A DNA stretch of 64,000 nt from Clostridia bacterium. GTDB taxonomy: Bacteria; Bacillota; Clostridia; Christensenellales; CAG-138. The stretch lies in NCBI GenBank assembly GCA_017524445.1, contig JAFXVP010000045.1:33676-97675 (forward strand), read 5' to 3'. Position numbers and translations under genes: made by a program. Shown in pieces: positions 22,745-49,458 of this stretch. The notes below the pieces were generated by a model. That model worked only from the letters and a program-made list of their open reading frames with translations. It was not told where the DNA came from and searched no databases. Each line of letters begins with the position of its first letter. The stretch's first letter is position 1.

Positions 22745-22886
22745 TGCGGCAGATGGGACTTCTTTGCGGCTGTGGATATCGGCGTCTCCCGCTTGCGCTC
22801 CGCGCTGCGCGTCCGCGCCTCGCCGCAAAGCCGCTTCGCTGCAAAACGACACACTGTGTCGTTTTGCGGGCGCTCAGTCAAGTCCC
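22745..22886 (-). repeat. tRNA-tail element copy 1 (downstream of tRNA-Leu GAG)
   Basis: A 142-nt element read on the minus strand. It starts with GGGACTTGA, the exact reverse complement of the T-loop and T-stem 3' strand of the adjacent tRNA-Leu. It ends with a 17-nt exact copy of that tRNA's 3' end without CCA (22745-22761). Predicted helices: outer GGGACTT/AAGTCCC; a perfect 12-bp hairpin with a 3-nt loop at 22841-22867; and CTTTGCGGC/GCCGCAAAG pairing 22822-22830 with 22762-22770. It shares its core with the elements at 48021 and 49314. Confidence 0.8.
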
Positions 22887-22899
22887 GACCTATTCATAT

Positions 22900-22942
22900 A
22901 AAAAATAATGAACCATCCGCAAGGGATGGTTCATTATTTTTT
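22900..22942 (-). terminator. Terminator after tRNA-Leu(GAG)
   Basis: A 15-bp perfect stem (22904-22918 with 22924-22938) followed by T-rich sequence on the minus strand. It lies between the tRNA and the repeat element. Confidence 0.85.
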
Positions 22943-22944
22943 GG

Positions 22945-23024
22945 TGCGGCAGATGGGACTTGAACCCATACGCCTGCGCACACGCACCTCAAACGTGCCT
23001 GTCTGCCAATTCCAGCACTGCCGC
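22945..23024 (-). tRNA. tRNA-Leu (anticodon GAG)
   Basis: An 80-nt cloverleaf on the minus strand: acceptor GCGGCAG/CTGCCGC plus discriminator A. The anticodon stem CACGT/GCGTG encloses the loop TTGAGGT, giving GAG. It has a leucine-type long variable arm and the T-arm GGG-TTCAAGT-CCC. A CC-A is present immediately 3' of the discriminator. Confidence 0.92.
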
Positions 23025-47884: not shown

Positions 47885-47968
47885 GCGATTGTGGTGGAAT
47901 TGGCATACACAACAGACTTAAAATCTGTCGGGGAAACCTTGCGGGTTCGAATCCCGCCAATCGCACCA
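47885..47968 (+). tRNA. tRNA-Leu (anticodon UAA)
   Basis: An 84-nt cloverleaf including encoded CCA. Acceptor GCGATTG/CAATCGC. The anticodon loop CTTAAAA lies between ACAGA and TCTGT, giving UAA. A long variable arm (CGGGGAAACCTTG region) marks the leucine class. The T-arm is GCGGG-TTCGAAT-CCCGC. Confidence 0.95.
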
Positions 47969-48006
47969 AAGAAATGGCCACCCGCATGGGTGGTCATTTC
48001 TTTGGC
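47968..48006 (+). terminator. Terminator after tRNA-Leu(UAA)
   Basis: A long stem AAAGAAATG.CCACCC / GGGTGGTCATTTCTTT with a GCAT loop. It has only a short T tract, so termination may be partial. Confidence 0.7.
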
Positions 48007-48020
48007 TTGTGTAATCGGAA

Positions 48021-48161
48021 GGGATTCGACGAGCGACCGCAAAACGCCGCAGTGTGGCGTTTTGCAGCGAGGGGCTTTGCGGGCAGATGCGGACGCGCAA
48101 CGCGGAGCGTAAGCGGGAGACATCGATGGGTGCCCGCAAAGGAATCCCGCCAATCGCACCA
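48021..48161 (+). repeat. tRNA-tail element copy 2 (downstream of tRNA-Leu UAA)
   Basis: A 141-nt element. It starts GGGATTCGA, the reverse complement of this tRNA's T-arm 3' strand. It ends with a 20-nt exact copy of the tRNA's 3' end including CCA (48142-48161). Helices: GGGATTC/GAATCCC; a hairpin at 48039-48065 with an AGT loop; and an 11-bp pair 48075-48085 with 48131-48141. Compared with copy 1, paired positions change together. A second terminator follows directly. Confidence 0.85.
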
Positions 48162-48162
48162 C

Positions 48163-48201
48163 GTCGTCGCAAGCTCCGCTTGGCTTGCGACGACTTTTTT
48201 T
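48163..48201 (+). terminator. Terminator after tRNA-tail element copy 2
   Basis: A 12-bp perfect stem GTCGTCGCAAGC / GCTTGCGACGAC with an 8-nt loop and seven T. It starts 1 nt after the copied CCA. Confidence 0.9.
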
Positions 48202-48306
48202 GTTGCTCAAACAAGTCTTCGCTTCGCTTTACTTCGCCATCCACTTCACTTCGTTCCGTTACATAGGTGCCGTCGCGCGATTCCCGCGCGTCGCCATGTC
48301 TCCTTT
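48202..48306. other. Non-coding stretch rich in CTTCG repeats
   Basis: About 100 nt of short CTTCG/CTTCR reiterations followed by GCGCG-ATTCC-CGCGC. No ribosome binding site or family resemblance is seen. It probably belongs to the degenerate repeat that follows. Confidence 0.4.
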
Positions 48307-48463
48307 CCGCAAACGATTTCGCTCGGTTCGCTTGTTCGGTTGTAAACGCCCTCACAACGGCTCACTGTCGCTACCAATCGTTTGCGGGTATGACGCGTCT
48401 CACGACGCGCTTATCGCGCGCAGCGCGGATCACAAGCGGAAGACAACGATGGGGGCCGCAAAA
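48307..48463 (+). repeat. Degenerate relative of the tRNA-tail element
   Basis: The 3' half resembles copy 2: GCGCAGCGCGGA, then ACAAGCGGAAGACAACGATG and CCGCAAA. A 12-bp perfect pair joins CCGCAAACGATT at 48307-48318 with 48376-48387. It lacks an adjacent tRNA and any copied tRNA 3' end, so it may be a decayed or differently built copy. Confidence 0.5.
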
Positions 48464-48535
48464 AAACGTCAATCGTATATGCAAAGCAAAATAACTTTGC
48501 TGTTGTAACTATATTGTAAATTCTGCTGTCTTTTC

Positions 48536-49190: not shown

Positions 49191-49267
49191 GGGGATGTAG
49201 CTCAGCTGGTCAGAGCGCTGTGTTCACATCGCAGAGGTCTAGGGTTCGAGCCCCTACATCCCCACCA
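49191..49267 (+). tRNA. tRNA-Val (anticodon CAC)
   Basis: A 77-nt cloverleaf including CCA. Acceptor GGGGATG/CATCCCC with discriminator A. The anticodon stem CTGTG/CGCAG encloses TTCACAT, giving CAC. The T-arm is AGGG-TTCGAGC-CCCT with one extra pair. Confidence 0.93.
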
Positions 49268-49313: not shown

Positions 49314-49458
49314 AGGGGCTCGACTGAACGCCCGCAAAGCCATCTGGTGGATGACTTTGCAGTGAAGCGGGTTTGCGGCAGGGCGGAATGCGCAGTTCGG
49401 AGAACAAGCATGACAGCCCGATATCCATCGCCGCAAACGAGCCCCTACATCCCCACCA
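49314..49458 (+). repeat. tRNA-tail element copy 3 (downstream of tRNA-Val)
   Basis: A 145-nt element. It starts AGGGGCTCGA, a 10-nt reverse complement of this tRNA's T-arm 3' strand. It ends with a 21-nt copy of the tRNA 3' end including CCA (49438-49458), and similarity continues 2 nt further. Helices: 9-bp outer pair 49314-49322 with 49438-49446; hairpin at 49334-49360; and GTTTGCGGC/GCCGCAAAC (49371-49379 with 49430-49438). The C-G to G-C swap relative to copy 1 keeps the pair. Confidence 0.85.

What the first reader, a model, noticed from the sequence alone, without database searches (positions are those of the whole stretch)
47885..48201. tRNA-Leu(UAA) is followed by an element that copies the tRNA 3' end and starts with its reverse complement
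The tRNA, a hairpin, a 141-nt element and a terminator lie in a row. The last 20 nt of the element are identical to the tRNA 3' end including CCA, 193 nt after the original. The first 9 nt (GGGATTCGA) are the reverse complement of the tRNA T-arm 3' strand. Direct copies of a tRNA 3' end are what tRNA-targeted integration leaves behind, but the matched inverted copy at the other end is not part of that model. This could be a minimal integrative satellite or a tRNA-templated RNA element.
Basis: partly seen in the sequence, partly recalled or inferred. Interest (0 to 1): 0.9.

Follow-up and report, generated by a model that had tools for sequence, protein, structure and literature searches.

The report
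tRNA-addressed palindromic insertion elements
In this gut bacterium several tRNA genes are followed by a short palindromic DNA element that carries a mirror copy of that same tRNA's T-arm and ends in a second copy of the tRNA's 3' end; it is likely a mobile insertion that would use the mirror copy as an address label for tRNA genes.

Summary
The element after tRNA-Leu(UAA) is one of three full copies in this window (the others follow tRNA-Leu(GAG) and tRNA-Val(CAC)). A covariance model of the core alone, ends left out, finds 56 matches in 21 of 23 genus genomes and matches 57 of 103 family genomes. In nearly all copies beside a tRNA, the left end mirrors that tRNA's T-arm: own 9-mer after 85 of 158 tRNAs, other tRNAs' 9-mers in 11 of 4740 trials, 0 of 112 in a phylum control; 22 isoacceptors. 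The mirror copy spans the insertion junction. One orthologous locus exists filled, truncated and empty; arrays are tandem; near-identical cores sit at different tRNAs with switched ends. Core hairpins show no G-U preference (4 GT, 5 AC), unlike tRNA stems (55, 3) and the hairpins after tRNAs (45, 4), so the fold seems kept as DNA. I read it as a non-autonomous, tRNA-addressed DNA insertion element. The enzyme is unknown: Cas1, reverse transcriptase and Y1 transposase genes do not track it. Rfam, phage and plasmid records and ten paper searches showed nothing like it.

The parts
47885..47968 (+). tRNA-Leu(UAA), host of element 1; its 47949-47968 (R57 to CCA) is the left copy of the direct repeat
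47969..48005 (+). hairpin P0 directly after CCA (A-tract and T-tract in the arms, terminator type)
   Evidence: I1; wobble pattern of hairpins after tRNAs
48021..48029 (+). inverted copy ('guide') GGGATTCGA, complementary to T55-C63 of tRNA-Leu(UAA)
48030..48141 (+). palindromic core: P2 hairpin (arms 48039-48051/48053-48065) and P3 stem (48075-48084 with 48132-48141)
48142..48161 (+). right copy of the tRNA 3' end, R57 to CCA, 20/20
48162..48201 (+). hairpin and T-run after the right copy; the same type of sequence follows some tRNAs without element in relatives (L010, L049, L133, L136), so read as the native terminator
49191..49267 (+). tRNA-Val(CAC), host of element 2
49315..49323 (+). guide GGGGCTCGA of element 2, complementary to T55-C63 of tRNA-Val(CAC)
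49324..49438 (+). core of element 2
49439..49458 (+). right copy of tRNA-Val 3' end, 20/20
22942..23024 (-). tRNA-Leu(GAG), host of element 3
22878..22886 (-). guide GGGACTTGA of element 3
22762..22877 (-). core of element 3
22745..22761 (-). right copy of tRNA-Leu(GAG) 3' end, 17 nt, CCA missing

Best explanation
The sequence after tRNA-Leu(UAA) belongs to a large family of short, gene-less palindromic DNA elements that sit in the T-loop of tRNA genes, and it is likely a non-autonomous mobile element whose inverted T-arm copy would act as a base-pairing guide for the insertion site. Shown: the unit is [tRNA 3' end copy, hairpin P0, spacer, guide, core] between C56 and R57 of the tRNA; the guide is complementary to the adjacent tRNA across that junction; the right copy starts at or one base before R57; filled, truncated and empty alleles and arrays exist, and related cores occur at different tRNAs; core hairpins covary without a G-U preference. 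Inferred: while single-stranded, the element folds (P2, P3), the guide pairs with TTC|RANYCCC of the target, and an unidentified trans-acting recombinase cuts there and inserts the unit, leaving a 14-20 bp copy so that the tRNA stays whole and gains a new terminator. New units would enter next to the tRNA; older internal hairpins decay. After a jump to another tRNA the guide would be brought into register by selection or by DNA template switching.
For: Core-only model (ends excluded) finds 56 matches in 21 of 23 genus genomes; 46 of 56 have a recognised tRNA within 450 nt upstream. Own-tRNA 9-mer guide after 85 of 158 distinct tRNAs against 11 of 4740 for other tRNAs' 9-mers; 0 of 112 tRNAs in a phylum sample. 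84 of 85 guides have a right copy. Outside 54-63 the guide match is near chance (position 64 matched in 29 of 84, 65 in 26, 53 in 16; position 66 in 45, about what base composition gives). Tracking of variable positions: R57 G/A in tRNA-Leu(UAA), C55 of tRNA-Thr, which lies outside the right copy, and a shifted class in tRNA-Arg with guide 51-61 and copy from 59. Filled, truncated and empty alleles with shared upstream reading frames; insertion between tRNA-Phe and tRNA-Gly. Arrays of different cores with one guide. Cores 92.6% identical at tRNA-Gln and tRNA-Glu of one genome with their own guides; at least 46 changes of tRNA on a tree of 83 cores, 56 or more in 100 label shuffles. Wobble test: P2 GT 4, AC 5 of 913 pairs; tRNA stems GT 55, AC 3; hairpins after tRNAs GT 45, AC 4.
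Against: No enzyme found: Cas1 in only 3 of 23 genus genomes; Y1 transposase genes in 12 of 23, and those whose flanks I read lie among other repeats where any are seen; reverse transcriptase absent from G100 and G101, which have the most copies. No circle, no excision event and no transcript data. 10 of 56 genus matches lack a recognised upstream tRNA. Right copies often lack CCA (kept in about 60 of 84), which a simple 20-bp duplication does not predict without later decay. The base before R57 also equals C56 in 43 of 84 right copies, so the junction could be 55|56 in part of them. Guide/right-copy pairs show a mild wobble excess (GT 13, AC 4). Five of 89 tRNAs with a right copy have a guide with three or more mismatches. 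The tree of about 115-nt cores is weak evidence on jumps, and labels are more clustered than in shuffles, so much inheritance is in place.
Confidence: 0.55

Rival explanations
1. Classical minimal integrative satellites: each is an attL/attR-bounded remnant or attP-only element moved by a tyrosine or serine recombinase that carries its own tRNA 3' end; the inverted copy is part of the recombinase's site.
For: Direct copy of the tRNA 3' end from the T-loop on, restoring the tRNA; filled and empty sites.
Against: 22 tRNA isoacceptors carry guides of this kind, and cores about 88-93% identical carry different tRNA 3' ends and guides, which one att site cannot do; no gene in the element; the inverted copy changes with the tRNA.
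Confidence: 0.2
2. A structured RNA: the guide pairs with the T-arm of the upstream tRNA or with the right copy (like P1/P10 of an intron, or a read-through control element) and acts on tRNA maturation.
For: 15 of 33 core pairs change on both sides and stay paired; the guide aligns both sides of the junction; one copy lies between tRNA-Phe and tRNA-Gly and would be transcribed if they form one operon; guide/right-copy pairs have GT 13 against AC 4.
Against: Core hairpins show no G-U preference (GT 91 against AC 75 of 3097 cells); a terminator-type hairpin stands before the guide in most copies printed; no Rfam family above its cut-off but tRNA; the copied acceptor end and CCA have no role in the predicted fold.
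Confidence: 0.12
3. The element is an insertion, but the guide has no function: DNA template switching between inverted repeats (quasi-palindrome correction) keeps rewriting the 9-10 nt into the mirror image of the tRNA.
For: Core palindromes look homogenised as DNA; one guide is extended to 18 nt (L207).
Against: Guide edges are sharp in nearly all copies and the guide sits across the junction in two classes with different junctions, as a functional address would.
Confidence: 0.13

Closest known systems
IS200/IS605 family (IS608), Y1 transposase with base-pairing guides
   Same: Insertion site chosen by base pairing of a guide located 5' of a hairpin's base; retargeted by changing the guide (PMC5934647, passages seen)
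   Different: IS608 guides are tetranucleotides and insertion is 3' to TTAC; here the guide is 9-11 nt, spans the junction, occurs with 22 tRNA isoacceptors, and a tRNA 3' end is duplicated; no Y1 gene tracks the element
REP sequences with TnpA-REP (RAYT)
   Same: Short dispersed palindromes, proposed to be moved in trans (PMC8266576, start of abstract seen)
   Different: The RAYT-like genes whose flanks I read lie among other repeats where any are seen; I recall no REP that copies a tRNA
Integron cassette arrays (attI/attC)
   Same: Head-to-tail arrays at one fixed site; attC sites are recognised as folded single strands (PMC6393395, start of abstract seen)
   Different: Attachment site is a tRNA T-loop; the units seen are gene-less (two doubtful exceptions); ends change with the tRNA; intI was not searched for
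Casposons (Cas1-solo)
   Same: Target duplications (14-nt TSD) and tRNA-Leu-related insertion sites (PMC10359463, passages seen)
   Different: Casposons carry cas1 and terminal inverted repeats; Cas1 is absent from 20 of 23 genus genomes
tRNA-targeted genomic islands and prophages
   Same: Direct copy of the tRNA 3' end (recalled as the usual mark)
   Different: No integrase, unit of 177-262 bp (median 195), inverted T-arm copy, many tRNA types per family

Membership tests
IS200/IS605 (and derived non-autonomous elements) | Y1 transposase encoded by, or reliably linked to, the element | tested here: not met
   PF01797 in 41 of 103 family genomes and 12 of 23 genus genomes; flanks of 13 Y1 genes read, without the element; R2 in 18 Y1 loci gave 3 matches, best 23.4 bits about 2 kb from the gene in L319
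IS200/IS605 (and derived non-autonomous elements) | No target duplication; constant short left flank (recalled) | tested here: not met
   tRNA 3' end present on both sides in 84 of 85
IS200/IS605 (and derived non-autonomous elements) | Guide 5' of hairpin pairs with cleavage site | tested here: inconclusive
   Guide sits 5' of P2 and is complementary to the junction; cleavage itself not testable
Casposon | Cas1-solo gene and terminal inverted repeats | tested here: not met
   Cas1 in 30 of 103 family genomes, 3 of 23 genus genomes; element has no constant inverted ends
Tyrosine/serine integrase island | Integrase gene in the element | tested here: not met
   unit of 177-262 bp, no room for a gene
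Integron | intI gene and attI beside the array | not tested
   intI not searched; the attI position is taken by the tRNA
Structured RNA (Rfam-like) | Helices maintained with G-U pairs allowed on one strand | tested here: not met
   P2 GT 4, AC 5; tRNA control GT 55, AC 3
Retroelement moved by a reverse transcriptase | Reverse transcriptase in genomes with many copies | tested here: inconclusive
   RVT_1 in 33 of 103 genomes; absent from own genome and from G100, G101, but assemblies are incomplete

The most novel reading that the evidence does not exclude
A new kind of mobile DNA: gene-less folded cassettes that carry a rewritable 9-11 nt address spanning the cut site, which lets one family colonise the T-loops of more than twenty kinds of tRNA gene, stack in arrays there like integron cassettes or CRISPR units, and rebuild each tRNA as they enter.
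Probability: 0.4. Interest if true: 0.92.

Novelty: categorically new. Interest (0 to 1): 0.82.

Why it matters
tRNA genes are common landing sites of mobile DNA in bacteria, yet the elements I know of are tied to one tRNA by a fixed attachment site. Here one family carries an address that changes with the tRNA. If the address is used, it is a natural retargetable base-pair-guided insertion system; if it is only rewritten by replication, it is a clean natural record of template switching. Both can be tested on the many gut and rumen genomes at hand. It also exposes a repeat class in gut Clostridia that Rfam does not hold.

Tried and rejected
Rfam: only tRNA above the cut-offs (on the window; on 11 and 8 loci). 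Below them, Collinsella-1 (15.6 bits, cut-off 35) covers one element end to end in L192, and BASRCI153 (35.4 bits, cut-off 137) hits L180; both treated as chance.

Termite-leu (recalled name) was looked up; the passages seen of the paper hold one table line on it and no Termite-leu match appeared.

Enzyme hunt: Y1 transposase, its neighbourhoods, Cas1, reverse transcriptase. None tracks the element. Reverse transcriptase is frequent in genera g48 and g9, which have copies, but missing in the g47 genomes with the most copies.

Cargo-cassette idea: L241 (ArsR-type and SdpI-type genes by Pfam, between two copies) and L273 (one 158-aa frame between tRNA-Ser and a copy) looked like loaded cassettes; other orphan copies turned out to sit behind truncated tRNA 3' parts, so I do not claim cargo.

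Viral contigs: one exact motif match (L356); R2 confirms the copy, which lies behind a serine recombinase gene (Pfam Resolvase and Recombinase) and a tRNA-Met-like 3' end, read as host DNA beside a prophage. Phage and plasmid records: no match to the Leu(UAA) copy.

Genome-contig motif scan: 50 loci; 19 of the 50 have a tRNA upstream, 18 of these with its own guide. 17 of the 19 are titled Clostridia or Clostridiales, one 'bacterium', one Christensenella. Further Clostridia loci had no tRNA in reach; matches in Thauera, Chloroflexota, Actinomycetes and other groups have no tRNA and are taken as chance.

One of the 56 genus matches (G002:C115, 29.7 bits) shows neither guide nor right copy and is probably chance.

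Papers: ten searches run, seen as listings; one search listed none. No listed title or abstract start describes this element. Subscription journals are mostly not held.

Full report
Check of the observation. tRNA-Leu(UAA) lies at 47885-47968. Its last 20 nt recur exactly 193 nt later at 48142-48161, GGGATTCGA at 48021-48029 is the reverse complement of the T-arm's TCGAATCCC, and the two hairpins are present.

It is a family, and the left end follows the tRNA. A DNA search of the window's own genome gave related copies after tRNA-Leu(GAG) in this window and on contig C47. The copy at tRNA-Leu(GAG) starts with GGGACTTGA, the mirror of that tRNA's T-arm, and ends with that tRNA's 3' end. A third copy in the window follows tRNA-Val(CAC) with GGGGCTCGA. 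I aligned 12 cores with both ends cut off; 15 of 33 predicted pairs have compensatory changes. The model R1 from this alignment found 56 matches in 21 of 23 genus genomes. 46 of the 56 have a recognised tRNA within 450 nt upstream; 10 do not. In the family R1 matched 57 of 103 genomes and 12 of 26 genera. A wider model R2 matched 22 of 396 genomes of the order; one of these is outside the family, and that copy (L300, tRNA-Ser(CGA)) has guide, right copy and the start of a second unit. A core motif scan of named genomes gave 50 loci, 19 with a tRNA upstream and 18 of these with its own guide; 17 of the 19 are titled Clostridia or Clostridiales, many from ruminants, one 'bacterium' and one Christensenella.

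Numbers for the guide. Over 158 distinct CCA-ending tRNAs in the loci held at that point, the reverse complement of the tRNA's own T55-C63 lies 15-95 nt downstream in 85; the 9-mers of other tRNAs are found there in 11 of 4740 trials. The 158 are enriched for element loci because many were fetched through the core (and some, through searches that included the ends), so the fair comparison is own against other. In 112 distinct tRNAs from 30 loci of a phylum sample the count is 0. The 85 cover 22 isoacceptors of 12 amino acids. 84 of the 85 have a right copy of at least 11 of 20 matches when aligned from R57 (the placing favours the first 12 bases). Seen from the right copy, 89 of the 158 have one of at least 12 of 14; their guide is perfect in 75, has one mismatch in 9 and three or more in 5. 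Five of the nine belong to the shifted Arg class.

The guide spans the junction. In the main class the right copy matches from R57 on (78 to 84 of 84 at positions 57-69); the base before it equals C56 in 43 of 84 and TC in 5 of 84, and in many copies that base belongs to the P3 stem. The guide covers T55-C63, or T54-C63 in 58 of 84, so 7 nt can pair with the right copy and 2-3 nt only with the tRNA itself. tRNA-Thr(GGT), whose T-loop has C55, has a guide with G at that place although the right copy does not include position 55. In tRNA-Arg(CCG) of this genus a different core has guide 51-61 (or 51-60) and a right copy from 59. Outside the guide the match is near chance: 29 of 84 at position 64, 26 at 65, 16 at 53; 45 at 66, where base composition alone predicts about 40 of 85. 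The right copy falls to about 60 of 84 at CCA.

Insertion. At the tRNA-Leu(UAA) locus with shared upstream reading frames the element is present in G000, G003, G013, G020 and G021, truncated in G001 and absent in G006, G017 and G018. G010 has shared upstream frames too; there the tRNA is followed by the native-type terminator and copies lie 263 and 1138 nt further on. G002, G015 and G022 lack the element but their neighbours differ, so I do not use them; G005 and G011 carry it near contig ends. In G033 a copy sits between tRNA-Phe and tRNA-Gly, which are 4 nt apart in the own genome; the same 4-nt spacing follows its right copy, and its hairpin there runs TTTT to AAAA, unlike a terminator. Arrays occur: R1 finds several units in L159, L161, L170, L173, L183 and L199, and in those read (L161, L173, L183) one guide is shared, with at most single-base changes, by differing cores; in L161 and L183 the hairpins of inner units have lost their 5' arm. 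Cores up to 92.6% identical sit at different tRNAs of one genome (Gln(CTG) L172, Glu(CTC) L197), each with its own guide; the right copy of L197 is degraded. A tree of 83 cores needs at least 46 changes of tRNA; 100 label shuffles need 56 or more. So copies are partly inherited in place and partly moved.

DNA, not RNA. With an arm finder that treats G-T and A-C alike as mismatches, P2 hairpins (83) contain 4 GT and 5 AC in 913 pairs. Hairpins right after tRNAs, with or without an element (126), contain 45 GT and 4 AC in 1835 pairs. tRNA acceptor and T stems (98 tRNAs) contain 55 GT and 3 AC in 1176 pairs. On the model alignment the core gives 91 GT and 75 AC of 3097 cells; two poorly aligned pairs supply 31 of the GT and 26 of the AC. 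Real RNA helices on the sense strand show the wobble excess and the core does not, so its palindromes seem to be kept or homogenised as DNA. The guide/right-copy helix shows a mild excess (GT 13, AC 4), which speaks the other way.

Enzyme. Y1 transposase genes occur in 12 of 23 genus genomes; of 18 Y1 loci fetched I read the flanks of 13 genes, and the element was not among them; where repeats are seen they are of other types (GTAGGG, or TGGGGACGGTTCTC and variants). R2 gave one hit of 23.4 bits about 2 kb from the gene in L319. Cas1 occurs in 3 of 23 genus genomes. Reverse transcriptase occurs in 33 of 103 family genomes but not in G100 and G101, which have 18 and 14 copies. These assemblies are incomplete, so absence is soft. 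intI and other tyrosine recombinases were not searched for. The enzyme remains unknown.

Copies without a tRNA. Several carry, just upstream, only the 3' part of a tRNA, as left by an island inserted into it (L190, L195, L206). A viral contig shows the same beside a serine recombinase gene.

Known systems. The closest working model is IS608, whose insertion is chosen by pairing of a guide placed 5' of a hairpin and can be re-programmed by changing it (PMC5934647, passages). Integron attC folding (PMC6393395, start of abstract in the listing) and casposon target duplication (PMC10359463, passages) share single features. The defining features that I could test are not met or inconclusive. I call it categorically new on present evidence; finding the enzyme could bring it back into a known kind.

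Judgement. That this is a family of tRNA T-loop insertion elements with tRNA-matched inverted ends I hold at about 0.85. That the inverted end works as an address I hold at about 0.55.

Noticed in passing
window 48162-48470: After the right copy comes a hairpin of the type CGTCGTCGC...GCGACGAC plus a second palindromic stretch (CCGCAAACGATT...AATCGTTTGCGG); similar sequences follow other tRNAs or arrays (L010, L049, L096, L183), so this looks like another repeat family.
   Followed up: partly
L241:1850-4200 and L273:3730-5000: Genes lie between a tRNA or first copy and a further copy (ArsR-type regulator and SdpI-type protein by Pfam; a 158-aa frame that looks like an acetyltransferase by eye), as loaded cassettes would look.
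   Followed up: partly
L010 and L136 against L082 and L108 (also L192, another genus): tRNA-Thr(GGT) with the element has T-arm ATGGGTCCGACTCCCAT; the gene without it in the same genus has a quite different T-arm but the same acceptor end.
   Followed up: no
L311, L317, L319, L320: RAYT-like genes of about 250 aa are flanked by repeats with the core TGGGGACGGTTCTC or a variant, probably their own REP family.
   Followed up: partly
L356 (IMGVR_UViG_3300027985_001696): A viral contig carries a large serine recombinase gene, a tRNA-Met-like 3' end and one element copy at one end: likely a prophage in tRNA-Met with host DNA attached.
   Followed up: partly
family genomes g48 and g9: One reverse transcriptase of about 400-470 aa per genome in most listed members of these two genera; type not determined.
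   Followed up: no
L099, after the tRNA-Leu(GAG) copy: The right copy is followed by short tandem repeats of itself (GGAAGAAGTCCCATCTGCCG).
   Followed up: no
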